32,695 nucleotides of DNA from a virus. Made by a program: the position numbers and the translations under genes. Positions 2,173 to 23,239 of this stretch are shown here, piece by piece. Position 1 is the first letter of the stretch. Every line of letters begins with the position of its first letter. The stretch spans positions 1 through 32,695 of the IMG/VR virus record IMGVR_UViG_3300044591_000494. One strand, written 5' to 3'. The notes under the pieces were generated by a model, which had not been told where the DNA came from, searched no databases, and was given only the letters and a program-made list of their open reading frames with translations.

Positions 2173-2243
2173 GCGGGTGTGGTGTAGCGGTAACATACCA
2201 TCCTTCCAAGTTGTAGTCACGGGTTCGATTCCCGTCACCCGCT
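2173..2243 (+). tRNA. tRNA-Gly (anticodon TCC)
   Basis: Acceptor arms GCGGGTG and CACCCGC pair fully. The D stem GTGT/ACAT, the T arm ACGGG-TTCGATT-CCCGT and the anticodon loop CTTCCAA (anticodon TCC at 2205-2207) are all present. The 3' CCA is not encoded. The anticodon stem CCATC/GTTGT holds two non-pairs (U-U and C-U), which is weaker than usual for a functional tRNA. Bacterial and phage tRNA-Gly(TCC) genes share this overall layout. Confidence 0.85.
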
Positions 2244-3381: not shown

Positions 3382-6300
3382 ATGGGTCTTAGTCGCTTAG
3401 ATAATTTCTTAAAGAATAGTAGAGGTGATATTTTATATGTTGATCCCTCAAGTATAGATTCAACTGACAGTATTGAGAATCAAGGTAATTCTCTGGTCAG
3501 ACCCTTTAAAACTATTCAAAGAGCCTTAATAGAAGCCGCAAGATTTTCTTATCAAAGAGGTCTGGATAATGATCGCTTTGGTAGAACAACAATTATCGTT
3601 TATCCTGGAGAACATTTAATTGATAATAGGCCAGGATGGATACCTATACATGATAATCCAGTAGCTGGTAATAATTGGTTAACCAGAGGTGGGGCAGTAT
3701 CTAATGAATTCCCAGAATTTAATTTAAATTCTAACTTTAATATTAATGATGATACTAATGATCTTTATAAAATGAATAGTGTATATGGGGGTATTATTAT
3801 TCCTCGTGGTACATCTATTGTTGGTATGGATCTTAGAAAAACTAAAATCCGTGCTAAATTTATTCCCAATCCAGAAGATTCTACAATTGATAGAACATCA
3901 ATTTTTAGAGTAACTGGATCTTGCTATTTTTATCAATTTACATTTTTTGATGCGGACCCAAATAGTGTTGTATTTAAAGATTATGGTCCTACTAAGTTTG
4001 TTCCAAATTTCTCTCACCACAAACTTACGTGTTTTGAATATGCTGATGGTGTAAATCCAGTAATTATTGATGATGATTATATTACATATAAAACCACAAA
4101 GACTGATTTAGATTTATATTATGATAAAATAGCTCTTACATATGGATCTTCCAGTGGAAGATTGATAAGTCCAGATTTTCCAAATAGTGGAGTTGATGTT
4201 CAAACAAAAATTGATGAATATAGAATTGTTGGATCAAAAGGACAAAATGTTGGTATTACAAGTATTAAAGCTGGTGATGGTGTAGTATCTTCAACCACAA
4301 TCACTGTTGATATCGAAGAATCAATCGGTGGATTGGATGTAGATACTCCAATTAGAATTGAGGGTGTTCCTACTGCTGGTTATAATGGTCAATATGTTGT
4401 AAGTACTTCGGAAAGTTCTACTAGAATTACTTATAAAACATCTTCTGCTCCTGCTAATCCTCTACCAACAATTGTTAGTGGAACTCCAACTCTTAATATT
4501 GTTGTAGATACTGTTACCTCTGCATCTCCATATATCTTTAACTGTTCTCTTAGATCAGTATTTGGTATGTGTGGTCTTCATGCTGATGGTAATAAAGCCG
4601 ATGGATTTAAGTCCATGGTTGTGGCACAATTTACAGGCATTGGTCTACAAAAAGATGATAATGCATTTTTAAAATATAATTCTACTTCTGGTGTATACGA
4701 AGATAAAACAGCAGTATCGAATATTCATACAAATTCTTCTGCGGTATATAAACCAGAATATGAAAACTTCCACATTAAGGCATCCAACGATGCATTCTTA
4801 CAGTTAGTTTCTGTATTTGCTATTGGATATGCAAATCACTTCTTAGCGGAAAGTGGTGGTGACCACTCTATTACAAACTCTAACTCAAACTTTGGTGCAA
4901 AATCTCTTGTCGCTAGGGGATTTAAAAAAGAAGCATTCCCAAGAGACGATACTGGATTTATAACACATATTATTCCTCCTCAAGAAATTCAGAGTGAAGA
5001 TATTAACATTGAATACACTTCTATTGACGTAGAAGCAACAGTAGGTATTGGAAGCACTACAAGATTATATCTTTACAACGAAACCGATTTAGCTAATCCC
5101 CCATTATCTGTTGTTGATGGATATAGAATTGGATCTAAAATAAATGATGAACTGAAAGTTCTTCTTAATATAAACGGACAATCTACAACAAAAACATCGA
5201 AAATTATAATGCCAAATACCCAAGGAAGGGGTATTTATGAAAGTTCTTCTTATAAAGAAGCTATTGTTGGCCGAACAAATATTGGTATTAATAGTATTTC
5301 TTCTAATACTTTTACTTTAACTGCACCCCACCAATTTATACAGGGTGAATCTTTAAGAGTTTATAGTAGTGATGGTGAACTTCCTGATGGATTAAATCAT
5401 AACCAAGTTTATTATGCTATTACTGCGGGAATTAATTCCAATCAAGTTAAACTTGCACAAACTTTTAATGATACAATTACTGAAGATGCTGTAATTGTTA
5501 ATAATAAGGGTGGTATTTTAACATTTGAAAGTAGAGTATCTGACAAAAAATCTGGAGATATTGGGCATCCAATTCAATTTGATAGTGGTAATGGGCAGTG
5601 GTATATTACTGTCAGTGGAATATCTAGTTACAATCAAATATATTCTAGTGTTGTTGGTCTTGGAACTACGACTCTGGGAAGAACAACTCCAAGAACATTT
5701 ATTACTAGAAAGTCTGATACTAGATCATTAACCGATAAGATTTATAAAGTTCGTTATGTAATACCAAAAGATTCTGCAGTTGTTGCAAGACCACCTAGAG
5801 ATGGATTTGTAATTCAAGAATCTAATACTACTATTGGTGCAACACAAGAAGAAATTGGAAAATATAATAGTGTTGATGCTGTAATTTTAAATAATTCATC
5901 GGAATTAAGGAATTATAGATTTATATCTAATGCTATTTGGGATTCCGTTGGTATTGCAACTCTTACTACTGAAATTCCACATGAATTATCTGTGGGATCA
6001 TTGATTCAGATCAATAATATTAAATCTGGATTTAATACTACTGGTATTGGTAATAGTGGATTTAATGGTGAATATTATGTAACTTCTAAACTTTCTAGAA
6101 GAGAATTCACAATTGGATTAACTACAAATCCAGGATTATTCCAAAGTGATACCTCAACTAGAGATATAAATTTACCATATTATAAGAGAGTTAGATTCAA
6201 TAATACTTTTGTAATATACAAATCAGAAGAAATTCAGCAGTATGTTCCAAATACCAAAGACGGTGTTTATCACTTAACTATTGTTGATTCTTCCAATTCT

Positions 6301-9210
6301 CCTTCTGTTGAACCATTTACTCAATTAAGGTTCTCACAACCAGTAAAAAATCTTTATCCACAATTAGATAGAGACAATATTAATTCTGATCCAGATCCAA
6401 CAGTATCTTTTGCATTACCTTCTCCATTAGGATTAGTTGAAGTTAATAATCCTCAAAATTCTATTACTAGAGAAAGTATTGTAAGAAGCATTAATGATTT
6501 TGCTGTAGGTTTTGGATTAACAGATATTCAGTCTTCTTCTGGATTAGCACATACATTATACACTAGAATTGATCATGGATTGAATAGAATTACTAGAGTT
6601 GGTATTGTAAGTGCTGGTGAAAATTATGGATCTGGATCTGGATCTATTGAAACCCTTTATAATGCTAAATTAGTAGGATTTGCTGGATCTACAACTGGAA
6701 ATTATGCCACTGCAAATATTAAAGTTGATGCCTTAGGTAGAATAACAGATGTTAGAGTTATTGATGGTGGATCTGCTTATGGAATTGGCAATACTCTTTC
6801 TGTAGTTGGTGTAGGTACAACTTTAGGTCATATTGTTGGTGTAGTATCTGTAACTCAAATTAATAATGATATTGGTAATGTAATTTCTATAAGTGGTTTA
6901 TACGATAAAGTTTTTGGGTCTTATAATAATCTTTATAGAATTACTGGAATTAATGTAGGACAGACCAATCAAATTCAAGTTGTATCTTCTTCTGAGGTAA
7001 TAGCACAATATCCATTTACTGGATCTACCCCTATTGCTGGAGTTAATACCAATGGATTGAGTAAAATTAATGCCACTCTTTTAAATACAGTTGAATCTTA
7101 TGTTACTGGTAATTCTTTAGGGATTACATCATTTACATATAATAATGTAACTGGAATTGCAAGTGTTACAACACTTCAATCTCATGGATTTGTGAATGGT
7201 ACTAAATTCAAAGTTGGTGGATTTAATCAAAGCGTTTATAATGGTAATTTCATTGCATCAAAAATTGTTGGATTAAATGATTTTGAATTTAATATTGGAA
7301 TAGGTACGACCTCACCAATATCTTCTGGAACTGCATACATTTATATACCAGGATTTGCCGCACAAGGTGGATTGCTGTCTGTAGATAATGAAGCAAATTC
7401 GAGTAGACTTGTTGCTCAATATGCTGGAATTACAACTACTTTAGATGTTGCATTAGTAGATCCAACAATCAATACTCTTACAGTTACAAATGCATTAGAT
7501 CGTAACTGGCAAGCTGGTGATTATATTATTGTTAATACCGAAATAATGCGTATTAGTGAAACTGTTGTAATTAATACTGCAATAGATGTATTCCGTGGAT
7601 TATTTGGAACTTCGAAGCAATCTCATCCAGCAGGATCTGTTGTTAAGAGAGTAAGATTTAAACCTATTGAATTTAGAAGAAACTCTATCTTACGTGCTTC
7701 TGGACATACATTCGAATATCTTGGATATGGCCCAGGTAACTACTCCACAGCACTTCCTGAAAGACAAGATAGACAGTTTATTGATGTTGAAAGAGTCTTA
7801 TCTCAATCTGTAAGTGATGACGGTGGAACTCCAATTTATAATGGATTAGATGATAATGGTAATACCTATACAGTTAATAAAGTAACAAACGCATCTACTG
7901 GTCAAGACTTATTAACTAAAGCACCAATTCCAACTGTTAGAGGTGAAGACATTACCTCTAATACACAAGCAGTAGGTTTTGATGTAGATTCTACAGATGA
8001 CCTGACAGTTGCTAGAGGATTAAAAGTTGAAGGTGGAACTGAGTCTACTATCATCTCAGAATTCAATGGACCAGTAATTTTTACTGAGAAAATAACATCA
8101 ACTTCTGAAGATGGAATTTTAGCGTCTTCTTTATTCCTCCAAGGTGAATCTACAACTTCTAGAAAATATACTGTAGGAATTGCTACTCCAGGATTATCTG
8201 GAAATGCTGGAGATATTGTCTATAAAGCAGATCCTAATGGTGGAGTTGCTGTTGGTTGGGTTTATACATTAGAGAATTCCTGGCAAGAATTCGGTCCTAT
8301 TAAATCTGTAGGAACAGAAAGATATTGTGGTATCTTTAGTGGTGCATTTGTTGGTGATGGATCTGGTCTCGATAATGTATCTGACGTTTGGGTATTTGAT
8401 GGTATTGGTATCTCTACCACAAGAGCTGTTGGTATGGGAACAACTTCATCTGTTCCAAGTGTTGCACTATATGTTGGTGGTAATGCTATATTTGCTGGTG
8501 TTACTACAATTAGAACAAACCAGTTAACTTTTGACGTTCCAAATGGATTCCTTGTTAATACTGGTATAACCACATTTAATCAGCAAGTTAATGTTAATAC
8601 ATTAAGAACAATTGGTATTTCAACATTCCAAAATGATGTTATTATTACAACAAATCCAGCAACTACTGGTGATACTGCTGGTAATTTCCTAAGATTTGTT
8701 CAATCTGATACATCAATTACTTCTGCCTACCAGTATGGTGGAATTAATTGGGAGGGTAATGATATTGGTAATAATGGTGTAAGAGGATATATTAGAGGTG
8801 TTGCTGAAGGTAGTACAGGACAATTTGCTATTACATTCGGAACACAACAATCTGGACCTTCTGCACCAATTGAGCAACTTAGAATTGCTTCTGATGGTAA
8901 TATAACTGCTAGTGGTGAAATTACTGCACTATCTGATGAAAGATATAAAACAAACGTAAAAAATATTGATGATCCTCTTGCTAAAGTTCTACAACTTCGT
9001 GGTGTAGAATATGATAGAATTGATAAAGAACAACATACTATTGGACTCATCGCTCAAGAAGTAGAAAAAGTCCTCCCAGAATTAGTTCATGAAAATCATG
9101 AGGGAGTAAAATCAGTTGCATATCAAAATATGGTTGCAATTCTGATTGAGGCGATTAAGGAACAACAAACACAAATTGAAGATCTGAAGAAGCGACTAGA
9201 CAATCTATAA
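3382..9210 (+). CDS. Giant virion/tail fibre-like protein with C-terminal S74 intramolecular chaperone
   Basis: Encodes 1942 aa. The N-terminus has DILYVDPSSID and RPFKTIQRALIEAARF followed by TTIIVYPGEHLIDN, a pattern of proteins that open into a right-handed beta-helix like pectate lyases. The middle is beta-rich, with repeated GIGTT-type turns and several copies of a module containing 'YNG.Y.V'. A segment near residues 1360-1430 has EIMRI and VFRGLFGTS...H..G, common in cyanophage structural proteins. The end (from about residue 1848) has SDERYK (S1851) and IGLIAQEVEKVLPELV, the Peptidase_S74/endosialidase chaperone domain, which assists trimer folding and cuts itself off before that Ser. 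A long terminal helix follows. AGA-biased codons and a late promoter fit a structural gene. Receptor specificity cannot be read from sequence. Confidence 0.85.
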   Translation: MGLSRLDNFLKNSRGDILYVDPSSIDSTDSIENQGNSLVRPFKTIQRALIEAARFSYQRGLDNDRFGRTTIIVYPGEHLIDNRPGWIPIHDNPVAGNNWLTRGGAVSNEFPEFNLNSNFNINDDTNDLYKMNSVYGGIIIPRGTSIVGMDLRKTKIRAKFIPNPEDSTIDRTSIFRVTGSCYFYQFTFFDADPNSVVFKDYGPTKFVPNFSHHKLTCFEYADGVNPVIIDDDYITYKTTKTDLDLYYDKIALTYGSSSGRLISPDFPNSGVDVQTKIDEYRIVGSKGQNVGITSIKAGDGVVSSTTITVDIEESIGGLDVDTPIRIEGVPTAGYNGQYVVSTSESSTRITYKTSSAPANPLPTIVSGTPTLNIVVDTVTSASPYIFNCSLRSVFGMCGLHADGNKADGFKSMVVAQFTGIGLQKDDNAFLKYNSTSGVYEDKTAVSNIHTNSSAVYKPEYENFHIKASNDAFLQLVSVFAIGYANHFLAESGGDHSITNSNSNFGAKSLVARGFKKEAFPRDDTGFITHIIPPQEIQSEDINIEYTSIDVEATVGIGSTTRLYLYNETDLANPPLSVVDGYRIGSKINDELKVLLNINGQSTTKTSKIIMPNTQGRGIYESSSYKEAIVGRTNIGINSISSNTFTLTAPHQFIQGESLRVYSSDGELPDGLNHNQVYYAITAGINSNQVKLAQTFNDTITEDAVIVNNKGGILTFESRVSDKKSGDIGHPIQFDSGNGQWYITVSGISSYNQIYSSVVGLGTTTLGRTTPRTFITRKSDTRSLTDKIYKVRYVIPKDSAVVARPPRDGFVIQESNTTIGATQEEIGKYNSVDAVILNNSSELRNYRFISNAIWDSVGIATLTTEIPHELSVGSLIQINNIKSGFNTTGIGNSGFNGEYYVTSKLSRREFTIGLTTNPGLFQSDTSTRDINLPYYKRVRFNNTFVIYKSEEIQQYVPNTKDGVYHLTIVDSSNSPSVEPFTQLRFSQPVKNLYPQLDRDNINSDPDPTVSFALPSPLGLVEVNNPQNSITRESIVRSINDFAVGFGLTDIQSSSGLAHTLYTRIDHGLNRITRVGIVSAGENYGSGSGSIETLYNAKLVGFAGSTTGNYATANIKVDALGRITDVRVIDGGSAYGIGNTLSVVGVGTTLGHIVGVVSVTQINNDIGNVISISGLYDKVFGSYNNLYRITGINVGQTNQIQVVSSSEVIAQYPFTGSTPIAGVNTNGLSKINATLLNTVESYVTGNSLGITSFTYNNVTGIASVTTLQSHGFVNGTKFKVGGFNQSVYNGNFIASKIVGLNDFEFNIGIGTTSPISSGTAYIYIPGFAAQGGLLSVDNEANSSRLVAQYAGITTTLDVALVDPTINTLTVTNALDRNWQAGDYIIVNTEIMRISETVVINTAIDVFRGLFGTSKQSHPAGSVVKRVRFKPIEFRRNSILRASGHTFEYLGYGPGNYSTALPERQDRQFIDVERVLSQSVSDDGGTPIYNGLDDNGNTYTVNKVTNASTGQDLLTKAPIPTVRGEDITSNTQAVGFDVDSTDDLTVARGLKVEGGTESTIISEFNGPVIFTEKITSTSEDGILASSLFLQGESTTSRKYTVGIATPGLSGNAGDIVYKADPNGGVAVGWVYTLENSWQEFGPIKSVGTERYCGIFSGAFVGDGSGLDNVSDVWVFDGIGISTTRAVGMGTTSSVPSVALYVGGNAIFAGVTTIRTNQLTFDVPNGFLVNTGITTFNQQVNVNTLRTIGISTFQNDVIITTNPATTGDTAGNFLRFVQSDTSITSAYQYGGINWEGNDIGNNGVRGYIRGVAEGSTGQFAITFGTQQSGPSAPIEQLRIASDGNITASGEITALSDERYKTNVKNIDDPLAKVLQLRGVEYDRIDKEQHTIGLIAQEVEKVLPELVHENHEGVKSVAYQNMVAILIEAIKEQQTQIEDLKKRLDNL

Positions 9211-9217
9211 ACTGTCA

Positions 9218-9242
9218 GGGGGGTTGACAACCCCCCTTTTTT
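9218..9242 (+). terminator. Strong intrinsic terminator after fibre gene, contains a -35 box
   Basis: GGGGGGTT (9218-9225) pairs with AACCCCCC (9229-9236) around loop GAC, then a run of six T. It lies 8 nt after the stop codon of the giant structural gene. The TTGACA of the following promoter forms the apex of the hairpin, so the same bases end one transcript and begin the next. Confidence 0.9.
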
Positions 9243-9254
9243 ATGGTGTATAAT
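9224..9254 (+). promoter_or_regulatory. Sigma-70-type promoter inside the terminator
   Basis: TTGACA at 9224-9229 and TATAAT at 9249-9254, with a 19-nt spacer (slightly long) and TG directly before the -10. The predicted start is near 9261, which supports GTG 9281 rather than TTG 9266 as the start of the next gene. Confidence 0.6.
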
Positions 9255-9280
9255 AATGGAGTAGTTTGATTTTATTATCT

Positions 9281-12200
9281 GTGTCCCTGGTCAATATCTA
9301 CGTTGATAGTCTTAAAAGCGGCGTAAATTCTTTCAACGTTGGTCAGACAATTTATACTTATGATCATCGTCATCGCAATAGTGACTATGGTAAAGCAAAG
9401 CAGACGCTTGCTCAAACAAAAGACCAGTACATTAATTACGCCTGGTGGACAAATGTATCTACTCGTGATGATGGTAAGGACGCTGGACACGATAAGATTA
9501 TTCATTCTTGGTTGGATACTCTTCCTGGGATGAAAAGGATTGGTGCAAAAAATAGTGAGACTTTTGAATTTGATCCAAAATTTTATAATCTTGAGATCAT
9601 CGTTCAAATGATCTATGAGAAATTTTTCTCTGGTAAGGAAAAAGTATATACTGAATTTAAACCTCGCCCATATCAACAGAAGTTTTTGCAAAAAATTGCT
9701 TCTGCATGGAATGTTAGTGAAGAATTTTTGTTGTTTGCCAAGTGCCGTGCAGGTAAGTCTGCTATGGTTCTCAAGCATATTGTAGATAGTAATTATAAAC
9801 TTTCTCTGGTTTGTTCTCGTCAAAGGTCACCAGAAGCTTCTTGGGAAAATGATTCTAACGAATTCTTTCCTACAATTAAATACATTTCTGTTCAAGATCC
9901 TTCTTGGGAAACGTATCTTGAATACTGGATGGAACGTGATGTAAATATTGTTCTATGGGGTACTGTACAGAGCTTTATTACACGTATTGATAGGATTCAT
10001 AATATTGATTTTGTTGCTTTTGATGAAGCACATATTGGTGGTACTGCTAAACAGTTCACCACTCTTCGCAACAAAATTAAAAGTCGTATCTGCTATATTT
10101 CTGGGACTGCTCATAAACTTTGCTGGATGTTCCCTGATGAACGCCAAAAGTTTGTGTATACTTATTTTGATGAACAATTTGATGTTCAAAATGGTGTTTT
10201 TAAGCGTCCTAAAATGAACATTGCTTTCGCAAAATACCAAACTTCTGCATATCAGGAAATTTTTGGTGATGATCCTGATGCTATGAAGAATATCTTCACA
10301 ATGGAAGATGATAAGTTTTTGTATGAGATTCTTGTTCGGGAATTTATTCACAAATACTTTGGTCCCCAACGAGAGATTCGCATTGGAGATCGTCTTTTAA
10401 GGGGTACATATCACATGATGGCACTTCCTAGTGTCAAAGCATGTCATGCATTTCAAAAGTTGGTGCATTGTTATTATCCTTCCCTAGTTGTTACTTCAGA
10501 TACTAATAAAGATCAAGATGATATTAACCGATTTCTTGAAGAAAATTCAAAAGCACTTATCATTACACAATCTGCAAACGTTCTTGGTGTAACTGCCAAA
10601 AAAATTGATACCGTTATTAATTGTAAAGGTGGTGAATCTATTGAGTTTTGGACTCAATTTGCTTTCCGTGGTGGTTCTGGTGTTCATGATTGGTGGGTGA
10701 TTGATTTTGATGCTCAGAGGTGTCTCCGTGCCATTCACACAGCATTCCAACTTGCATGTGATAATAATCCTGCACTATCTCAATATAGTGTAGTTGACTT
10801 TACCAATATTCACGAATGGAATGATGGATTTAAAGAACTCAGTAAAGAACTTTTTGAAGATGCCCTCGCCGCTGATGTTGAGGGAAGCATCTCTACCATT
10901 ACCAGTATCGTAGAATCTCTGGACCTTAGTAAGATTAGCGATTTTAATCTAAAACTCAAAACCGATCTTTCCACGGTTATGAAAGAATCACAACTTAACG
11001 ATGAGGGTGCCAACAACAAAAGTTGTATCGTTCGGGAGACTGAGCGTGTAAAAAAGTCTAATGACCTTGACACTTTGAAGAAGCAGACTGTCAAGGCACT
11101 TCTTGAGTCTATTCCTCTGACCATGTTCTACATCATTCGTAATGGTCAAAATGTATATTCAATCAATGATGTTATTGGTTCTGCAGTTTATCCTTCTGTT
11201 ACTGGTGACTGTGAGGGTATTCTTGATGATGTGATTAGTAAGAACCCTCATAGCATTGAACTTTTAACTCGTCGTATTGGTATTGTTTCTAATAGTATTC
11301 AAAAGAGTATTAGGAATTCCGTTTCTCATACTATTAATGAGTTGTCTGTGTCTTCTCAAATTCAACAGTCTATTCCTGTCGAACTTTTTGATCTTATGAT
11401 TGATAACTGCAATGATCTTTCTAACGTCTACATGTTTGGTGATCCTAGTGGATCTCACACTGCCCGTCTTTTAGAGCGACAAGTGGATCCAAATAACATT
11501 ACCGTATGGGAGAGTTGCAATAGTCATCGTAATCGTGTAAAATATATCAATGATAGTATTAATATTGTTGACTCTCATCCAGATATGAAGTTTACCGCCA
11601 TTTTAGCAAATCCTCCATATAACGATCCCACCAAAAAAGCAAAGAACAATAAACTTTGGCCTATTGTGGTTGAACAGCACCTTGAACTGGTTGCTCCTGG
11701 AGGAGACATTTGTGAAGTTACTCCTTCATCTGTTCTTGGAACAACAGGTAAAGGTAAAAAGTTTATGAAGTTGTTCTCTACAAAGTATAATCTAAAAATG
11801 ATTGATTATACTGCAGATGATTACTTTACTGAGGGTGTTGCTATTTGTCGTTGGCATCTTACAAATGAACCTTATCAGGGTAAAACCACTGTCATTACTC
11901 ATGATGGTTCCTTTACTTGGGATTTGCGAGATGGTCTTCCTCTTGTTGGAGATTCTGCTCTTAAGCATTCTATCCTTAATAAGATTGCTAACTCTAACCA
12001 TCCACGTATTCCTCTAAAGATGGGTCAAGCAATTGCTAAAGAAGATCATATTCCTGATGGCAAGTATGAGATCTACCACTCTTCTAAAAAAGTTAAACGC
12101 ACCAATATTGTTCCTACAACTGGAGATGTGCTAAAGTTTATTGTTCCATTCTCTTCTACGTATAAGAATGGTGGCATCTTTACCTCTAGCGGATTTGTGG

Positions 12201-12436
12201 GTATGTTTAATTGTTGGTGTCCAATTACTTCGGAAGAAGAAGGGGATCGTCTTAGTAAAATCTTTGACAATAAAATTATTCAGTTCTTTATTGATAATTA
12301 CAAAAAGACTGCTGGATTTACTCCCGCCATTAAAAATGGTGAAGTACCTGACATTACAGACTATGCTAATTTGTCTGATCAATTTGGTTTTACTGAAGAA
12401 GAAGTTGAGTATTTAAAGAAAAATAATGCCATCTAA
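9281..12436 (+). CDS. GIY-YIG/T5orf172-like + SF2 helicase + N6-adenine DNA methyltransferase fusion
   Basis: 1051 aa from GTG 9281 (TTG 9266 is the only in-frame alternative nearby; there is no early ATG). Residues 1-100 show NIYVDS, FNVGQT, HRHR, DKIIH (71-75) and ETFEF, matching the order of T5orf172/GIY-YIG nucleases (YV, KIGkT, R, E..lH, EwF) but with Asp in place of the catalytic Glu. The SF2 helicase core has Walker A CRAGKS (155-160), FDEAH (247-251), SGTAH (274-278) and a motif VI-like QFAFRGGSG (about 460). The methyltransferase has a motif I-like GDPSGS (720-725), an acidic residue in VWES, and NPPY (777-780), the N6-adenine signature. About 250 residues follow that could recognise DNA. 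The layout recalls single-chain type ISP/IIG restriction-modification enzymes with a different nuclease. Restriction activity is inference. Arg codons are mostly CGT/CGC, unlike the upstream gene. Confidence 0.75.
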   Translation: MSLVNIYVDSLKSGVNSFNVGQTIYTYDHRHRNSDYGKAKQTLAQTKDQYINYAWWTNVSTRDDGKDAGHDKIIHSWLDTLPGMKRIGAKNSETFEFDPKFYNLEIIVQMIYEKFFSGKEKVYTEFKPRPYQQKFLQKIASAWNVSEEFLLFAKCRAGKSAMVLKHIVDSNYKLSLVCSRQRSPEASWENDSNEFFPTIKYISVQDPSWETYLEYWMERDVNIVLWGTVQSFITRIDRIHNIDFVAFDEAHIGGTAKQFTTLRNKIKSRICYISGTAHKLCWMFPDERQKFVYTYFDEQFDVQNGVFKRPKMNIAFAKYQTSAYQEIFGDDPDAMKNIFTMEDDKFLYEILVREFIHKYFGPQREIRIGDRLLRGTYHMMALPSVKACHAFQKLVHCYYPSLVVTSDTNKDQDDINRFLEENSKALIITQSANVLGVTAKKIDTVINCKGGESIEFWTQFAFRGGSGVHDWWVIDFDAQRCLRAIHTAFQLACDNNPALSQYSVVDFTNIHEWNDGFKELSKELFEDALAADVEGSISTITSIVESLDLSKISDFNLKLKTDLSTVMKESQLNDEGANNKSCIVRETERVKKSNDLDTLKKQTVKALLESIPLTMFYIIRNGQNVYSINDVIGSAVYPSVTGDCEGILDDVISKNPHSIELLTRRIGIVSNSIQKSIRNSVSHTINELSVSSQIQQSIPVELFDLMIDNCNDLSNVYMFGDPSGSHTARLLERQVDPNNITVWESCNSHRNRVKYINDSINIVDSHPDMKFTAILANPPYNDPTKKAKNNKLWPIVVEQHLELVAPGGDICEVTPSSVLGTTGKGKKFMKLFSTKYNLKMIDYTADDYFTEGVAICRWHLTNEPYQGKTTVITHDGSFTWDLRDGLPLVGDSALKHSILNKIANSNHPRIPLKMGQAIAKEDHIPDGKYEIYHSSKKVKRTNIVPTTGDVLKFIVPFSSTYKNGGIFTSSGFVGMFNCWCPITSEEEGDRLSKIFDNKIIQFFIDNYKKTAGFTPAIKNGEVPDITDYANLSDQFGFTEEEVEYLKKNNAI

Positions 12437-12842
12437 AAATAAACATAACAAAAAGCATGGATCTCAACTTGAGAGATCTGATGAGAGAATCAAACAGACG
12501 CAGGAGGTATTTACTCCTCCTGCCCTAATTGATAAAATGATTTTGGATATTCCAGAAGAGGTTCTTAAAGATCCAAGTTCTAAATTTATTGATAACTGTG
12601 CTGGTGACGGTAATTTTTTAGTTCAATTACTTAAAGCACTTAGACAATATCATACTGAACAGCATATTGTAGATAATATGTTATATGCTGTGGAGTTAAT
12701 GGAAGATAATCATAAAGAATTATGTAAAAGAATTGGGGTGTCCACCTCCCATCCTCACTATGTGTGCTATGATGCCCTGGAATATCATTACCGATTTGAT
12801 GGTACGTTAGGACCAATTACCTTAGACCAATTTTTGAACTGA
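12426..12842 (+). CDS. Half methyltransferase: SAM-binding part without the catalytic motif
   Basis: Encodes 138 aa and overlaps the previous gene by 11 nt, so the two are probably translated together. It contains QEVFTPPALIDKMI (motif X-like, typical just before the SAM pocket of N6-adenine methylases), DNCAGDGNFLVQLL (motif I) and YAVELMEDNHKEL (motif II). The protein ends at TLDQFLN before any NPPY/DPPY motif IV. The N-terminus is Lys/His-rich. It is either a natural fragment, a subunit that completes or regulates the methyltransferase of the upstream fusion, or a SAM-binding decoy. The domain identification is firm from motifs; the role is inferred. Confidence 0.75.
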   Translation: MPSKNKHNKKHGSQLERSDERIKQTQEVFTPPALIDKMILDIPEEVLKDPSSKFIDNCAGDGNFLVQLLKALRQYHTEQHIVDNMLYAVELMEDNHKELCKRIGVSTSHPHYVCYDALEYHYRFDGTLGPITLDQFLN

Positions 12843-12849
12843 CCACTCT

Positions 12850-12882
12850 GCTGCCCCAGGGCGGCATATTTTGCTGTATAAT
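12850..12882 (+). promoter_or_regulatory. Hairpin plus T-rich tract, then TATAAT
   Basis: GCTGCC (12850-12855) pairs with GGCGGC (12860-12865) around CCAG and is followed by ATATTTT. TATAAT at 12877-12882 follows 11 nt after the hairpin. No -35 box stands at 17 nt. The arrangement echoes the terminator/promoter composites at 9218 and 30704 and probably lets the helicase gene have its own transcript. Confidence 0.45.
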
Positions 12883-12903
12883 AACTTTATTGAGATTGAG
12901 ACC

Positions 12904-14133
12904 ATGATTCTTCGCCCCCACCAGCACGAAGCATTGCAGATCATGCTTAAGGAGCGTCTTGGCATCGTTGTATTCCCCACTGGTGGCGGCAAGAGTCTTG
13001 TTGCCATTATGGATGCCAAGCGTCAATTTGACGAGGGTAATAAAACTATTGTTGTTGTTGCTCCTCGCCTCATGCTTGCTCGGCAATTGTCTTCCGAGTT
13101 TCTTGAGCACATCACCAATGCTTCTGTGATGCATGTTCATTCTAAAAGTGATCTTCCCTACTTTACTACTACAGATCCTAATCAGATCTATGCTTGGAAT
13201 TATCATACTAATGGTAATAAATTGATTGTTACCACTTATCATTCTCTTCATCGTATTCAAGAGTCTGGTATTAAGGTTGATAGCATTTACTTTGATGAAG
13301 CACACAACTCTACTAAAAGGAATTTCTTCGATTCCACTAAGTATTTTTCTGTTAATTCTGATCGCTGTTATTTCTTTACTGCTACTCCTAAGTATTCTGC
13401 TACTTCTTCCAAACCAGGTATGAATAATAGTGATGTTTATGGTCGGGTTATTTGCAATGTTCCTGCACCTGCACTGGTCAATAATGGATCATTGATTCCT
13501 CCTAAAATTAATCCCATTAATATCGGTAGCATTCGTCTTAAGGGCGAAGAGGCGGCAGAACGCGATTGTATGACTTTGTTGGATACTATTTGTAATGAAG
13601 ACCATATGGATAAAGTTTTGATTGCTGCTCCTAACACTAAGGTTATGGTCCGTATGCTTGCTGAGACTGATTTTATGAAAGAAGTGCGGTCTATGGGGTA
13701 TGATCTCCTCTGGATTACCAGCAAACATGGTGCATTTTTGAATGATCAGAAAATCTCCCGTGAACAGTTTTTTCAATTGGTCAATCAGTTTGGTGCAGAT
13801 CCTGACAAAAAATTTATCGTCATGCATTATTCTATTTTGAGTGAAGGTATCTCTGTTCCTGGTCTTACTTCTTTGATTATGATGCGTCAAATGAATGTTA
13901 TTGAGATGTGCCAATCTGTTGGTCGTGTTTTGCGTCTTCATCTTGATGATGTCAAGCGTATTCAGAATGGTACACTTACTCCAGGCAAACTTAGCGACTA
14001 CACCAAATCATTCGGTCTAGTTCATGTTCCTGTTTACAGTAATGTTGGTATTGCTACTGTTAAGCGTCTCCAAAATATCGTAGATACGGTATTTGTACAA
14101 GGTCAACCTGCAATTTCTACTATTAAGCGATGA
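12904..14133 (+). CDS. SF2 DEAH helicase
   Basis: 409 aa from ATG 12904; the frame is open further upstream, but that part overlaps the -10 element. It opens MILRPHQHEAL (Q-motif-like), then FPTGGGKS (Walker A, residues 24-31), VVAPRLMLARQL (Ia), YFDEAHNS (II), FFTATPKYS (III), and MCQSVGRVLRLH (VI). Both RecA-like domains are present and no extra domain is visible. This is the layout of UvsW/type III Res-like ATP-dependent helicases or translocases. It lies in the same CGT-biased block as the helicase-methyltransferase fusion and may work with it. Alternatively it serves recombination or replication-fork remodelling, as UvsW does in T4. Confidence 0.85.
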   Translation: MILRPHQHEALQIMLKERLGIVVFPTGGGKSLVAIMDAKRQFDEGNKTIVVVAPRLMLARQLSSEFLEHITNASVMHVHSKSDLPYFTTTDPNQIYAWNYHTNGNKLIVTTYHSLHRIQESGIKVDSIYFDEAHNSTKRNFFDSTKYFSVNSDRCYFFTATPKYSATSSKPGMNNSDVYGRVICNVPAPALVNNGSLIPPKINPINIGSIRLKGEEAAERDCMTLLDTICNEDHMDKVLIAAPNTKVMVRMLAETDFMKEVRSMGYDLLWITSKHGAFLNDQKISREQFFQLVNQFGADPDKKFIVMHYSILSEGISVPGLTSLIMMRQMNVIEMCQSVGRVLRLHLDDVKRIQNGTLTPGKLSDYTKSFGLVHVPVYSNVGIATVKRLQNIVDTVFVQGQPAISTIKR

Positions 14134-16770: not shown

Positions 16771-17913
16771 ATGCATTACAAATTTCCAACAATTACACAT
16801 TTGGATCAAGTTAAGAATGCTATTGAAGGTTATGACGAATTTCGTGTAACTGATAAAGGATTCTATACTGTTGTAAATTATGCTGTAGCTTTTGATAATA
16901 CTTTTGATATTAATGATGAAAATGATATTAATGGTATGATTCGTAGGGAATGTCGGGGATTAATTTTTGATGTTGATGGTAATTTGATTTCGCGTCCCTA
17001 TCATAAGTTTTTTAATTTAAATGAAAGAGAAGAAACTCATATTGATACTGTAGGATTTGATCTTCATACTGTTCTTGAAAAAATGGATGGATCAATGATT
17101 CGTCCTATTCCAACAGAACATGGATTTAGACTTGCCACAAAAGCAGGAATTACTGATGTTGCAATAAATGCTGAAATTTTTATTTCAGATAAACCAGAAT
17201 ATGCAAATTTTATTAATCATTGTATTGCTCGGAATTTAACTGCAATCTTTGAATGGTGTTCTCGTAAAAACAGAATTGTTGTTGATTATCCAGAAGATAA
17301 ATTAATTCTTACTGCTCTAAGAAGTATTAAAAATGGATCTTATTGTTCATATAATAATCTGCGTCTTCTAACAGAACAATATAATATTCCTCTGGTTAAA
17401 AAATGGCCAGATAATATGAATATCCAAGAATTGGTTGAGTATGTTCGTAATCTTGAGGATGAAGAAGGTATTGTTCTAAGGTTTGACAATGGACATATGT
17501 TGAAAATTAAAGCGGAAGAGTATGTACTTCGTCATAAAACTAAAGAGCAAATCAGTCAAGAAAAAAATGTTTTGGATGTAATTATTGAAGATAAAGTTGA
17601 TGATGTAATTCCTTTGCTATTAGATTCTGATGCAAGTAGATTGAAATATTTTCAAAAAGCATTTTGGATTAATGTGGATGATGTTGCATTTAATTTAGCT
17701 GAGACATATCAAAAAGGAAAACACTATCAAGATAAAAAATCCTTTGCTGTAGAATTTGTTCAAAAACTTAGTCCTCATTTACAACCATTCATGTATGCAA
17801 TGAATTCTGGAAAAGGTTCTAAAAGTCTCTTGGTAGAATCTATTAAAAAATCATTAACCTCACAAACTAAAATAGACCAATCTCGTTGGATGTGGGGAAA
17901 CTTAGTTTGGTAA
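16771..17913 (+). CDS. rnlA: T4 Rnl1-like RNA ligase
   Basis: Encodes 380 aa, close to T4 RNA ligase 1 (374 aa). It has the nucleotidyltransferase motif I KMDGS with Lys104 as the predicted AMP-accepting residue, preceded by ECRGLIFD as in T4. FEWCSRKNRIV follows (motif III-type), then EEGIVLRF (motif IV) and LKIKAEEYV (motif V). The C-terminal third is helical, as in Rnl1. The enzyme joins 5'-phosphate to 3'-OH RNA ends, classically repairing tRNA cut by host anticodon nucleases. It is followed by an HNH gene and then a PNK-like kinase and a phosphatase that would heal the ends. The 68-nt gap upstream shows T-rich sequence but no clear promoter. Confidence 0.9.
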   Translation: MHYKFPTITHLDQVKNAIEGYDEFRVTDKGFYTVVNYAVAFDNTFDINDENDINGMIRRECRGLIFDVDGNLISRPYHKFFNLNEREETHIDTVGFDLHTVLEKMDGSMIRPIPTEHGFRLATKAGITDVAINAEIFISDKPEYANFINHCIARNLTAIFEWCSRKNRIVVDYPEDKLILTALRSIKNGSYCSYNNLRLLTEQYNIPLVKKWPDNMNIQELVEYVRNLEDEEGIVLRFDNGHMLKIKAEEYVLRHKTKEQISQEKNVLDVIIEDKVDDVIPLLLDSDASRLKYFQKAFWINVDDVAFNLAETYQKGKHYQDKKSFAVEFVQKLSPHLQPFMYAMNSGKGSKSLLVESIKKSLTSQTKIDQSRWMWGNLVW

Positions 17914-17917
17914 ATTT

Positions 17918-18394
17918 ATGGAAACCATATTACTAGAACCACATAAAACAATATTAGTTCTTAATGCAAGTTATGAACCAATAAATTTTTGTAATTGGAA
18001 AAGGGCTATTGTGCTTCTTTTAAAAGAAAAAGCACAACTACTGTCATCTAGAGTAATTCGTTTAATTAATTACATACAGTTACCAATTTCTAAAATAATG
18101 TCATGTAAACCATCAAGACAGTTGGTTTATAAAAGAGATGATAATCGTTGTCAGTATTGTGGATCAATAAAACAACTTACTATTGATCATGTAATACCAA
18201 AATCTAAAGGTGGTAAAGACACCTGGGAAAATTTAGTTGTTGCTTGTATGTTATGTAATACGAAAAAAGGTGATAGGACACCAGAAGAGTGGGGAGTTCC
18301 ATTGCATCAAAAACCAAAGGCACCATTTAATAAAATGACAATTAGTTTAAAAACCTCTAATGTTCCTGAATGGAAGGAGTATGTTTATGCCTGA
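17918..18394 (+). CDS. HNH endonuclease-like protein
   Basis: Encodes 158 aa. The N-terminal ~60 residues (VLNASYEPINFCNWKRA) match the domain that precedes HNH in many cyanobacterial and phage HNH proteins. The HNH core is CQYCG ... TIDHVIPKSKGG ... ENLVVACMLCNTKKGD, with two CxxC pairs for a structural zinc and the DH and N residues for metal and catalysis. It lies between the RNA ligase and the kinase. It could be a free-standing homing-type endonuclease inserted in the RNA repair operon, or a DNA-processing nuclease. All key residues look intact. Confidence 0.85.
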   Translation: METILLEPHKTILVLNASYEPINFCNWKRAIVLLLKEKAQLLSSRVIRLINYIQLPISKIMSCKPSRQLVYKRDDNRCQYCGSIKQLTIDHVIPKSKGGKDTWENLVVACMLCNTKKGDRTPEEWGVPLHQKPKAPFNKMTISLKTSNVPEWKEYVYA

Positions 18395-20988: not shown

Positions 20989-21818
20989 AAACCTTTAAAG
21001 TTCCGCACATAGAATTACATGTAACGCATACTTGCAATTTTAGTTGTGAAGGATGTTCTCATTATTCAAATCACGGACATTCTGGAACTTTATCTCTAAA
21101 AGAATGTGATGAATGGTTGTATTCTTGGAGTAGAAGATTGCAACCAGAATTGTTTACTATATTGGGTGGAGAACCAACTCTTAATAAGAATTTAATTGAT
21201 ATAATTTATCTGGTAAGAATGATGTGGCCAGATACTGCAACTGCAATTGATTTAGTATCAAATGCAAGTTTTTTGCATATGCACTCTGATTTACCACAAG
21301 CGTTGCTTGATACTGATACTACTTTAGCAATTTCAATTCATAGTAAAATACATCCTGGGTATGTAAATAAATTTAAAAAAGGATATAGATTGGCTAAAGA
21401 ATGGAGAAAGCAGTATGGAATAAATTTAGAATTTTGGGACTTTACAACAGATACATGGATGCCCCAATATAAAGGATTTGGCAATAATATGATGCCATAT
21501 GAAGATAATGATCCAAGAAAAAGTTGGGAAAAATGCTTATCTAAAAAGGCTCTACAAATACATGAAGGTAAATTGTGGAAGTGTCCACCTCTGGCATATT
21601 TACCGATGCAAACAAAAAAATATGAACTTGACAAAAAATGGGATCCTTATTTAAAATATAAACCATTGGATATAAACTGTTCTGATCAAGAACTTGAAGA
21701 ATTTTTAAATAGGGAAGATGAGTGTTTTTGTGCTATGTGCCCAGCAAATATTGACAATCCATATCAAAAAAATGATCCAACTCTTCCTGTAAGTTATTGG
21801 GAGAAGTTAAACTCATGA
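20985..21818 (+). CDS. Radical SAM protein
   Basis: Encodes 277 aa. CNFSCEGC (residues 17-24) is the CX3CX2C motif that binds the radical-generating 4Fe-4S cluster. LGGEPTL is the GGE motif contacting SAM. The C-terminal part has further Cys (in SWEKC, WKCPP and ECFCAMCPA), suggesting an auxiliary cluster of SPASM type. It begins with ATGA overlap on a small gene and ends with ATGA overlap on the carbamoyltransferase. With that enzyme and two SGNH-like proteins it probably modifies a peptide, sugar or lipid. Family call firm; substrate unknown. Confidence 0.85.
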   Translation: MKTFKVPHIELHVTHTCNFSCEGCSHYSNHGHSGTLSLKECDEWLYSWSRRLQPELFTILGGEPTLNKNLIDIIYLVRMMWPDTATAIDLVSNASFLHMHSDLPQALLDTDTTLAISIHSKIHPGYVNKFKKGYRLAKEWRKQYGINLEFWDFTTDTWMPQYKGFGNNMMPYEDNDPRKSWEKCLSKKALQIHEGKLWKCPPLAYLPMQTKKYELDKKWDPYLKYKPLDINCSDQELEEFLNREDECFCAMCPANIDNPYQKNDPTLPVSYWEKLNS

Positions 21819-23239
21819 TTACCTGGGGAATATCATCAGAAAGTCACAATGCAGCTCTCTCTGTATTTGTTAATGACACATTAGTTTTTGCTAGTGAAAG
21901 TGAAAGATTTAGTGGTATAAAAAATGATGCATATTTGAATGATGATATTATTAACTATGCACTAAAGTTTGGAAAACCAGAACTGGTCTGTTGGTATGAG
22001 AACCCGTATAAGAAAACACTTAGACAACTTCTTGCAGGTCAAGGATGGATCCAAAACGTCAAGAAGTATGTTGATGTTCCAATCAAGTATTATGATCACC
22101 ATTATACTCATGCTTGTGCTGGTTATTTCACCAGCAAGTTTGATGAATGTTGTGTGGTGGTTATTGACGCTATAGGTGAATTTCAGACACTCACTATCTG
22201 GGAAGCAAACGGTAATAGATTAAAACTTAAGTTTCAACGTAAATATCCACACAGCATCGGACTTTGGTACTCTGCGATGACTCAAAGGTGTGGATTAAAA
22301 CCAAATGAAGAAGAATATATCCTCATGGGCATGTCTGCTTATGGGGATAAACTTCTTTATGAAAATGATATCTACAGAGATTTTATAGGATTTAGGACTG
22401 CAACATTTAAAAAAAACTTACATAAAGGATGTAGAGATTGGAGACCTGACATTAAAAACACTTTTGATATTGCTGCTGCAACTCAAGACATTTATGAAAC
22501 AATGTTTAGAGATATTCTACAGAGAGCATCTAATATTGTTGATAGTAGAAACTTAGTTCTGATGGGTGGATGTGCATTAAACTGTGTTGCAAATCCAATT
22601 GCATATTATTACTTTGATGATGTGTGGATTATGCCTGCACCTGGTGATAATGGATCTGCCATTGGATCTGTTCTTGCTCATAAAAAACATCATATTGATT
22701 GGCATGGACCTTATCTTGGATATCATATTAAACCAGTTGCAACAAATGAAGAGATTGTTGATCATTTAATGGATCATGGTCTTTGTGGAGTTGCAAGGGG
22801 TCGTGCAGAGTTTGGTCCTAGAGCATTAGGTAATCGTAGTTTGCTTGCCGATCCTAGAGACCGAAAGATTAAATCAATGGTCAATGATATAAAACAGAGA
22901 CAACAGTTTAGACCATTCGCTCCTGTAATCATGGAAGAGTACGTGCATGACTATTTTAATATGCCTACAAATTCATCACCATATATGCAGTATGCGGTTA
23001 AATGTAGATATTCTAAAAAGTTTCCTGCAATTGTCCATATAGATAAGACAAGTAGAGTTCAAACTGTTAATAGACAACAGAATGCAGAACTCTATGATCT
23101 TTTAAAATTGTGGAATGAGAAAACTGGTTGTCCAATGTTATTAAACACAAGTTTAAACATCAAAGGAAAACCAATGGTAAATGATGAGAATGATTGTAAA
23201 GAATGGGAAGAGACTTATGGAGTGAAAATATTTTCATGA
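21815..23239 (+). CDS. Carbamoyltransferase (NodU/TobZ type)
   Basis: 474 aa from ATG 21815 (ATGA coupling). The N-terminus ISSESHNAALSVFVND and DHHYTHACAGYF (94-105) hold the metal-binding His residues of the ASKHA-fold domain. VVVIDAIGE, MGGCALNCVANP, RAEFGPRALGNRSLLADPR and LLNTSLNIKGKP follow in the family order. Such enzymes make carbamoyl-adenylate from carbamoyl phosphate and ATP and transfer the carbamoyl group to a hydroxyl of a sugar or small molecule. The C-terminus ends soon after KGKPMVNDENDC, about 30-60 residues shorter than in typical NodU proteins. It is preceded by the radical SAM gene and followed by an SGNH-like gene. Confidence 0.9.
   Translation: MITWGISSESHNAALSVFVNDTLVFASESERFSGIKNDAYLNDDIINYALKFGKPELVCWYENPYKKTLRQLLAGQGWIQNVKKYVDVPIKYYDHHYTHACAGYFTSKFDECCVVVIDAIGEFQTLTIWEANGNRLKLKFQRKYPHSIGLWYSAMTQRCGLKPNEEEYILMGMSAYGDKLLYENDIYRDFIGFRTATFKKNLHKGCRDWRPDIKNTFDIAAATQDIYETMFRDILQRASNIVDSRNLVLMGGCALNCVANPIAYYYFDDVWIMPAPGDNGSAIGSVLAHKKHHIDWHGPYLGYHIKPVATNEEIVDHLMDHGLCGVARGRAEFGPRALGNRSLLADPRDRKIKSMVNDIKQRQQFRPFAPVIMEEYVHDYFNMPTNSSPYMQYAVKCRYSKKFPAIVHIDKTSRVQTVNRQQNAELYDLLKLWNEKTGCPMLLNTSLNIKGKPMVNDENDCKEWEETYGVKIFS

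What the first reader, a model, noticed from the sequence alone, without database searches (positions are those of the whole stretch)
9281..12436. Phage gene fusing a GIY-YIG/T5orf172-like domain, an SF2 helicase and an N6-adenine methyltransferase
One 1051-aa chain holds, in order, FNVGQT...DKIIH...ETFEF (T5orf172/GIY-YIG-like), CRAGKS/DEAH/SGTAH/QFAFRGG (SF2 motor) and GDPSGS/NPPY (N6-adenine methylase) plus a long C-terminus. This is the logic of single-chain type ISP restriction-modification enzymes with a different nuclease. A lytic phage carrying one could restrict rival phages, degrade the host chromosome while sparing its own methylated DNA, or act as an unusual mobile element. The nuclease-like part has Asp where Glu is expected, so it may be inactive or altered. 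The domain order is seen; the activity is inferred.
Basis: partly seen in the sequence, partly recalled or inferred. Interest (0 to 1): 0.75.

Follow-up and report, generated by a model that had tools for sequence, protein, structure and literature searches.

The report
Phage restriction enzyme with split methylase
A virus that probably infects cyanobacteria appears to carry its own DNA-cutting and DNA-marking machine, in which the marking half is divided between two neighbouring genes, giving it a possible way to destroy foreign or host DNA while sparing its own.

Summary
Among PDB folds its model's best Foldseek match is the Type ISP enzyme LlaBIII. 'GDPSGSH' is not a normal SAM-binding motif I. 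The overlapping next gene (12426-12842, 138 aa, called S) carries a canonical methylase N-half (motifs X, I, II) and stops before NPPY. In the 80 viral loci most like this S, the overlapping upstream gene has NPPY in 76 (63 distinct proteins), against 7 of 444 other gene pairs; in 41 of the 76 it starts at NPPY with no motif I. Four phage contigs encode both halves as one ORF. Nuclease-motor and S co-occur in 56 of 59 loci. Most likely this is an ATP-dependent restriction-modification enzyme whose methylase is split in trans, carried by a T4-like cyanophage. Activity, target site and what it cuts are inferred. Whether S replaces or supplements the window chain's own degenerate SAM fold is unresolved, and one bacterial relative fits an accessory role for S. 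New variant of a known kind.

The parts
9217..9237 (+). intrinsic terminator behind the tail-fibre gene (AGGGGGGTTGACAACCCCCCT then TTTTT)
   Evidence: 3 overlapping terminator-like sites found in 8900-9500, mean 0.2 in shuffles
9224..9254 (+). sigma-70-like promoter candidate TTGACA-N19-TATAAT, its first box inside the terminator. The spacing is longer than the scan tool's 16-18, so that tool did not list it; chance level not computed.
   Evidence: a TATAAT-like box behind a T-run is seen by eye in at least 22 of the 27 upstream regions printed; not listed
9281..12436 (+). large chain, 1051 aa, GTG start: nuclease + SF2 motor + catalytic half of the m6A methylase + C-terminal region
9281..9637 (+). 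residues 1-119: T5orf172/GIY-YIG-like nuclease domain (Y7, G21, T23, R30, D71, H75, E93)
9641..10840 (+). residues 121-520: SF2 translocase/helicase core (AKCRAGKS, DEAH, SGTA, QFAFRGG)
10841..11416 (+). residues 521-712: link (558-594 low confidence) and helical region
   Evidence: boundaries inferred
11417..11584 (+). residues 713-768: degenerate beta1-beta3 SAM fold with GDPSGSH in place of DPxxGxG; absent from L059
11585..11920 (+). residues 769-880: catalytic methylase half from motif IV (MKFTAILANPPY)
   Evidence: 3' boundary inferred
11921..12433 (+). residues 881-1051: C-terminal region, probable target-recognition domain
   Evidence: function inferred
12426..12842 (+). S chain, 138 aa: SAM-binding methylase half (motif X TQEVFTPP, motif I FIDNCAGDGNFL, motif II YAVELMEDN), no NPPY; overlaps the large gene by 11 nt
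3382..9210 (+). upstream neighbour: tail-fibre protein (context only)
12871..14133 (+). downstream neighbour: UvsW-like DNA helicase (context; 'UvsW' is a recalled name, the family calls it DNA helicase)

Best explanation
The locus encodes a two-subunit, ATP-dependent restriction-modification enzyme of a T4-like cyanophage. The large chain carries a T5orf172/GIY-YIG-like nuclease, an SF2 translocase, the catalytic (NPPY) half of an N6-adenine methylase and a C-terminal recognition region. The overlapping 138-aa gene supplies the SAM-binding half. The two halves together form one methylase that marks a specific site on phage DNA. On unmarked DNA the motor runs and the nuclease cuts, as in Type ISP and Type III enzymes. 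Shown by sequence and models: domain order, the missing canonical motif I, the partner gene, its linkage, the natural fusion. Inferred: complex formation in this phage, methylation, cleavage, and that the substrate is host or rival DNA.
For: Among the 80 S loci kept, S has motif I in 80 and NPPY in 0; the overlapping upstream ORF has NPPY in 76 against 7 of 444 other ORF pairs in the same loci. Near-copies are included: 65 distinct S, 63 distinct partners, 31 partner clusters at 90% identity. By the pattern used, none of the 76 partners has a canonical motif I before NPPY, save one hit that lies in the nuclease domain; 41 start at NPPY, e.g. Prochlorococcus phage P-SSM2 036/037. L059 keeps the window's methylase half and C-terminal region (57% identity) plus S between the same neighbours, without nuclease, motor or the degenerate fold; all seven loci L059-L065 have both neighbours. 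Natural single-ORF fusion in an Aeromonas phage and four IMG/VR contigs; VIA-align of its model gives ranges that span both halves (1-371) for beta-class methylases: MboIIA Z 11.2 (rmsd 3.0, 143 aligned), M.BceJIV 10.8. Pfam N6_Mtase profile is covered in complement, both below cut-off: S 21-89, large chain 109-234. Nuclease-motor and S in 56 of 59 loci. Whole-chain fold: LlaBIII. Fused and separate motor-methylase states change at least 7 times on a 49-row tree.
Against: GDPxGxH-like sequences are conserved in divergent large chains, so that fold may be functional. Bacterial L180 has a large chain matching the Eco57I profile at 1-170 of 171 and still has an S-like gene, which fits an accessory role. 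L149 has motor and methylase but no S in the 13.6 kb held. The window protein itself has no Pfam GIY-YIG or T5orf172 hit. Fusion model confidence is middling (pLDDT 74, pTM 0.69), it has no Foldseek match at E 0.001, and other rows match only one half (M.TaqI and CamA the NPPY half, Trm14 the S half); a range shows only the first and last aligned residue. The 80 loci are those most similar to the window's S, not a random sample. No activity data.
Confidence: 0.65

Rival explanations
1. The large chain is a complete methylase whose GDPSGSH fold binds SAM in an unusual way; S is an accessory or regulatory subunit, or the pair forms a pseudo-symmetric heterodimer.
For: Own beta1-beta4 order predicted in the large chain; GDPxGxH-like sequences in divergent large chains; bacterial L180 keeps an S-like gene beside a large chain with a near-complete Eco57I match.
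Against: 41 of 76 S partners start at NPPY and have no such fold; L059 keeps the same methylase half and S without it; natural fusions join NPPY half and S half without it.
Confidence: 0.2
2. Modification only: the pair protects phage DNA against host restriction, and the nuclease-motor is inactive or acts in repair or recombination.
For: Methylase-S pairs without nuclease-motor in the overlapping gene are common (L059-L065, P-SSM2 type). The Asp replaces the usual Glu.
Against: Nuclease residues G21, D71, E93 are invariant in 49 of 49; a Walker A-like pattern is found in 46 of 49 and SGTA in 49 of 49; sequence conservation across all domains. No dN/dS test was made. DExH pattern found in only 42 of 49.
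Confidence: 0.1
3. A mobile (homing-like) cassette that uses the GIY-YIG domain to spread.
For: GIY-YIG domains occur in homing enzymes (passages of PMC1564403). The family does not keep one genome slot: the window's downstream helicase is found in 36 of 59 nuclease-motor loci and its tail-fibre gene in 28 of 59, and neither in MA10, S-CAM7 or ACG-2014f (many loci are cut). ACG-2014f isolates differ at one place, C16 with nuclease-motor and C90 without.
Against: Close relatives keep the slot (helicase in 18 of 19, tail fibre in 16 of 19); motor and methylase would be unexplained; nuclease-motor and S stay linked across divergent loci. Flanking repeats and target sites were not looked for.
Confidence: 0.06

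Closest known systems
[quoted passage not shown]
   Same: Nuclease, translocase, methylase and C-terminal recognition in that order in one long chain (definition in passages of PMC3874165); top Foldseek match of the model
   Different: N-terminal nuclease is GIY-YIG-like, not Mrr-like PD-QxK; canonical SAM half is a separate gene; encoded by a phage
Type III restriction-modification (Res + Mod; EcoP15I, Mbo45V)
   Same: SF2 motor plus N6-adenine methylase; fusion model aligns with Mod, range spanning both halves (Z 9.1)
   Different: Mod is one complete methylase; here the methylase is divided and its catalytic half is fused to the motor
PADLOC REase_MTase_IIG model PDLC03626 and bacterial chains L180, L186, L192 with neighbouring S-like genes
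   Same: ResIII motor and NPPY methylase with a small S-like neighbour; MUG113 above cut-off in L192, T5orf172 weak in L186
   Different: Window chain does not match that model; S-like gene precedes the large gene in 16 of the 24 bacterial loci; L180's own methylase may be complete
Naturally split cytosine methylases such as M.AquI (recalled)
   Same: One methylase in two chains
   Different: C5 class; here an N6-adenine methylase divided before motif IV and linked to a nuclease-motor
GIY-YIG restriction enzymes (Eco29kI, recalled and seen in a search listing; GIY-YIG/HsdR and GIY-YIG/methylase fusions noted in PMC1564403 passages)
   Same: GIY-YIG nuclease in a restriction or methylase context
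   Different: No SF2 motor with split methylase in the passages seen

Membership tests
Type ISP R-M enzyme | N-terminal Mrr-like PD-(D/E/Q)xK nuclease | tested here: not met
   N-domain is T5orf172/GIY-YIG-like
Type ISP R-M enzyme | SF2 DNA translocase following the nuclease | tested here: met
   ResIII weak in window (16.4 bits, cut-off 22.5), above cut-off in six homologous chains scanned; SF2 fold matches
Type ISP R-M enzyme | complete gamma-class N6 methylase in the same chain | tested here: inconclusive
   NPPY and Eco57I domain present; motif I degenerate, GDPSGSH
Type ISP R-M enzyme | C-terminal target-recognition domain | tested here: inconclusive
   conserved C-terminal region in close relatives; alignment to LlaBIII ends at model residue 888
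Type ISP R-M enzyme | ATP-dependent translocation and cleavage between two sites | not testable with these tools
   needs protein
GIY-YIG / T5orf172 nuclease | domain score above curated cut-off | tested here: not met
   window protein none; homologous chain L160 25.2 bits, cut-off 20. Hence '-like'.
GIY-YIG / T5orf172 nuclease | conserved active-site pattern (Tyr, xxGxT, Arg, acid...His, Glu; pattern recalled) | tested here: met
   Y7 43/49, G21 49/49, R30 42/49, D71 49/49, H75 46/49, E93 49/49; the acid is Asp in all
Split N6-adenine methylase (large chain + S) | motifs X-II on one chain, motif IV on the other | tested here: met
Split N6-adenine methylase (large chain + S) | the halves form one fold | tested here: inconclusive
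   suggested by model for the natural fusion only; window pair not co-folded
Type III R-M | separate complete Mod methylase subunit | tested here: not met
   neither the large chain nor S has both motif I and NPPY in canonical form

The most novel reading that the evidence does not exclude
T4-like phages and some bacteria use a modular half-enzyme system: one generic SAM-binding subunit (S) pairs in trans with interchangeable catalytic-recognition halves, free-standing or fused to a GIY-YIG nuclease, with or without an SF2 motor. One S may serve several partners: four of the 59 nuclease-motor loci (L143, L151, L153, L157) hold two methylase-half genes before one S, and ACG-2014f has an NPPY-start gene some 100 kb from its S. 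In cyanophages, reported to lack denA, ndd and denB (PMC2984593, passages), the nuclease-bearing form could be an undescribed host-DNA degrader.
Probability: 0.25. Interest if true: 0.87.

Novelty: new variant of a known kind. Interest (0 to 1): 0.7.

Why it matters
If true, it adds a two-gene architecture for adenine methylases in which the SAM-binding half is a separate small gene, usually left as 'hypothetical protein' in the phage records opened, so that such methylases annotated from one gene would be incomplete and might test inactive alone. It also gives a candidate for a question left open for marine T4-like cyanophages: a review notes they lack T4's host-DNA degradation genes denA, ndd and denB, and so either degrade host DNA less efficiently or use an undescribed method (PMC2984593, passages read). 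A phage-borne enzyme that cuts unmarked DNA and spares its own would also bear on exclusion of rival phages.

Tried and rejected
Internal start at Met769 giving a methylase-only product: the Met aligns with the start of free-standing halves, but no ribosome-site-like sequence precedes it by eye; not pursued. Late-promoter motif ATAAATA (recalled when searched; later seen in passages of PMC2984593): 7 in the window against 21 expected, none just before this gene. Phage-only origin: the scan of bacterial genomes with the nuclease-motor confirmed none of 139 candidates, but the S scan found 24 loci, so phage-only was dropped. PDB sequence search of the large chain: one chance-level hit, E 0.37; of bacterial L180: none. 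Foldseek on the fusion model: no hit at E 0.001, best 3.5e-3. VIA-align on the full model listed mostly helicases, so nuclease and C-terminal parts were barely tested there. A look at phage S-SCSM1, which has a similar tail fibre, showed structural genes after it and no methylase. For bacterial loci only plus-strand ORFs within the flanks held were tabulated. Literature: ten searches listed no paper whose title or abstract start describes a split phage adenine methylase or a phage GIY-YIG-SF2-methylase; the library lacks most subscription journals, so this is weak. Papers: passages only of PMC3874165, PMC12707154, PMC1564403, PMC2984593; all others only as search listings. REBASE was not available.

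Rows dropped: the tree has 49 rows, being the window, three phage records and 45 of the 59 loci; fragments and near-copies were left out. The tally concerns the 80 loci kept of at least 394 confirmed and includes near-copies and the window's own or an identical virus (L033); distinct counts are. The first tally was faulty, because short spurious ORFs overwrote partners, and was replaced.
Full report
What is there. Pfam finds Eco57I methylase above cut-off (29.7 bits against 25.3) and ResIII below it (16.4 against 22.5); PHROGs places residues 15-707 in a family of unknown function (4.6e-205), 720-1041 in a DNA methyltransferase family and 93-476 in a DNA helicase family (1.1e-15). The window is a 32.7-kb virus record; an IMG/VR contig of 38.5 kb encodes the identical protein (L001). 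Its nearest annotated relatives are Synechococcus phages MA10, MA01, ME01, MC09, S-CAM7 and ACG-2014f (the three opened are Kyanoviridae), so it is very likely a T4-like cyanophage (inference). One annotator calls the MA10 gene 'type II restriction-modification system restriction subunit'.

Nuclease domain. The window protein itself has no Pfam nuclease hit. In 49 aligned nuclease-motor chains, window included, Y7 is kept in 43, G21 in 49, T23 in 47, R30 in 42, D71 in 49, H75 in 46 and E93 in 49. Three homologous chains, L160, L166 and L167, carry a canonical-looking T5orf172 domain on the same motor; of these only L160 was scanned, with 25.2 bits against a cut-off of 20. Five other homologous chains scanned in the same call gave no nuclease hit. 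In the L160 group, as in the window, an Asp stands four residues before the His. Profile comparison of the two sets gives E 5.8e-5 but only 65.6% probability. The model's N-domain has the order strand, strand, helices, strand, helix, then two short strands and a helix, which fits a GIY-YIG fold (recalled). The Asp is therefore a family trait.

Motor and whole fold. SGTA is found in 49 of 49, the Walker A-like pattern in 46, the DExH pattern in 42 and QFAFRGG-like in 46. The model of the whole chain (57-row alignment; pLDDT 81.9, pTM 0.70) has LlaBIII, a Type ISP enzyme, as best Foldseek match in the PDB (9.2e-18). VIA-align gives LlaBIII Z 22.4, rmsd 8.4 over 630 residues, model 105-888, which leaves most of the nuclease out; it ranks 27th, and helicases such as RadD score higher (25.6).

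The methylase lacks a normal SAM motif. Where other N6 methylases have DPxxGxG (recalled), the window and its relatives have GDPSGSH or kin. NPPY is present, with NAPY in L019.

The partner gene. The next gene, 12426-12842, overlaps the large gene by 11 nt and encodes 138 aa with motif X (TQEVFTPP), motif I (FIDNCAGDGNFL) and motif II (YAVELMEDN), ending before motif IV (motif names recalled). Nineteen aligned phage sequences, window included, all keep among others S18, R21, T25, E27, F29, T30, G60, G62, N63, E90, D94 and N95. Pfam N6_Mtase matches this protein at profile positions 21-89 (E 0.001, below cut-off) and the large chain at 109-234 (E 0.041, below cut-off). I call the protein S.

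S and the NPPY gene go together. A scan of IMG/VR found at least 394 confirmed S relatives; the 80 best were kept. Of these 80, the ORF overlapping the start of S has the NPPY motif in 76. Of the four others, two are cut by the contig end (L056, L109) and two have a helicase gene in that place (L073, L088); in L073 an NPPF methylase lies one gene further up. S has motif I in 80 of 80 and NPPY in none. Among 444 other ORFs in the same loci with an ORF ending near their start, 7 have an NPPY-like upstream ORF. Near-copies are counted in both: the 80 hold 65 distinct S and 63 distinct partners, in 31 clusters at 90% identity. In 41 of the 76 the partner begins at NPPY (within 15 residues) and has no room for motif I; in 35 NPPY is internal, in 29 of these after a DPxGxH-type sequence. 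By distinct partners this is 35 and 28. The first group includes the P-SSM2 type, where 036 begins MKFTLAIGNPPY and 037 is S.

Modules change around the pair. L059 has tail fibre, a methylase half with the window's C-terminal region starting at NPPY, S, and the UvsW-like helicase, with no nuclease-motor; L060-L065 have partners of the same size and both neighbours. S-SKS1 (by eye, no Pfam hit for that domain) and Klebsiella phage PKO111 have GIY-YIG-like domains fused directly to the NPPY or NYPY half, followed by S; PKO111's scores 57.1 bits for LEM-3_GIY-YIG, cut-off 27. Bellamy and ACG-2014f have S, an NPPY gene, a helicase and a small gene that may be a PD-(D/E)xK nuclease (by eye; Mrr_cat only E 0.12 in the ACG-2014f gene, none in Bellamy's).

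Natural fusion. Aeromonas phage AsFcp_4 gene 239 is a single ORF with the NPPY half first and the S half last. Four IMG/VR contigs hold it, at 69-99% identity. Its model (29-row alignment; pLDDT 74.3, pTM 0.69) has no Foldseek match at E 0.001. VIA-align gives ranges of about 1-371, spanning both halves, for single-chain methylases whose motif order is likewise IV first (class order recalled): MboIIA Z 11.2, M.BceJIV 10.8, TTHA0409 10.5, M1.HpyAVI 10.4, CcrM 9.5, and for Type III Mod subunits at 9.1; M.TaqI and CamA match only the NPPY half and Trm14 only the S half. How many aligned residues fall in each half is not reported. A profile search finds HsdM of EcoR124II at E 0.0071, S part at 194-251, with a non-significant NPPY part at 292-306, i.e. 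the halves in the opposite order. Two genes that are one gene elsewhere are expected to work together.

Nuclease-motor, methylase and S form a unit. A scan with the nuclease-motor found 59 viral loci. S lies in 56; L137 and L174 run to the contig end, and L149 has none in the 13.6 kb held. The methylase half was found by HMM in all but L169, L170 and L174; in L169 an INPPF frame is open, L170 was not read. Motor and methylase are fused in some and separate in others, with at least 7 changes forced by well-supported branches of a 49-row tree. The slot is not fixed: the window's downstream helicase is found in 36 of the 59 loci and its tail-fibre gene in 28, in 18 and 16 of the 19 closer loci L002-L020, and in none of MA10, S-CAM7 and ACG-2014f (many loci are cut). 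In the window a terminator follows the tail-fibre gene and a TTGACA-N19-TATAAT pair lies between it and the GTG; TATAAT-like boxes behind a T-run recur in at least 22 of 27 upstream regions, by eye. The unit thus looks separately transcribed by host-type polymerase, which would allow early expression (inference).

Bacteria. The nuclease-motor scan of GTDB genomes confirmed none of 139 candidates; the S scan confirmed 24 loci. L176 is phage DNA by its content. In L192 and L180 an S-like gene overlaps or abuts a large chain with ResIII and NPPY; 16 Gram-positive loci have the S-like gene first and a large Walker A chain after it, many cut by the flank. L192's large chain scores MUG113 22.5 (cut-off 22.3) and has a broken motif I (DMACKDPSF, by eye), whereas L180's matches the Eco57I profile at 1-170 of 171. 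PADLOC's REase_MTase_IIG model matches the large chains of L180, L186 and L192 (170, 73 and 34 bits). So the architecture is not confined to phages, and the bacterial cases do not all support the split reading.

What remains open. The window chain's own degenerate fold is predicted as strands before beta4 in the usual order. Either S displaces it, or S sits beside it. The free-standing NPPY halves and the natural fusion favour displacement or replacement; the conservation of GDPxGxH and L180 favour an added role. Methylation, target, cleavage and biological use are all untested. Use against host DNA is attractive because cyanomyoviruses are reported to lack denA, ndd and denB (PMC2984593, passages; the review also allows that they simply degrade host DNA less efficiently), but nothing here shows it.

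Verdict. New variant of a known kind; interest 0.7.

Noticed in passing
L143, L151, L153, L157: Two methylase-half genes precede a single S gene (both motifs read by eye in L151): one SAM half may serve two catalytic halves.
   Followed up: partly
L176-L199 (GTDB genomes): S-like small genes without NPPY next to large Walker A/NPPY genes in Prevotella, Lactobacillus, Streptococcus, Lactococcus, Gordonia and others; L177 is a single-ORF fusion, L199 has normal motif order.
   Followed up: partly
L027:3445-4008 and L028:4482-5084 (Bellamy gp87, ACG-2014f gp52): Small genes near S with a pattern like a PD-(D/E)xK nuclease, a possible alternative nuclease module; family evidence very weak.
   Followed up: no
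L059:4157-5411 (and L060-L065): Between the same neighbours as in the window there is only a methylase half and S, without nuclease-motor: a natural methylation-only version. L059 was read; L060-L065 only by partner length and neighbours.
   Followed up: partly
window 2173-2243 and 2836-2907: tRNA-Gly(tcc) and tRNA-Thr(tgt) genes.
   Followed up: no
window 16771-17913 and 17918-18394: RNA ligase / tail-fibre attachment catalyst followed by an HNH endonuclease gene.
   Followed up: no
window 21797-23239: Nol-like carbamoyltransferase gene (344 bits).
   Followed up: no
window 28575-29741: 388-aa gene matching ferrochelatase families in its N half and ferrochelatase / 2OG-Fe(II) oxygenase families in its C half.
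   Followed up: no
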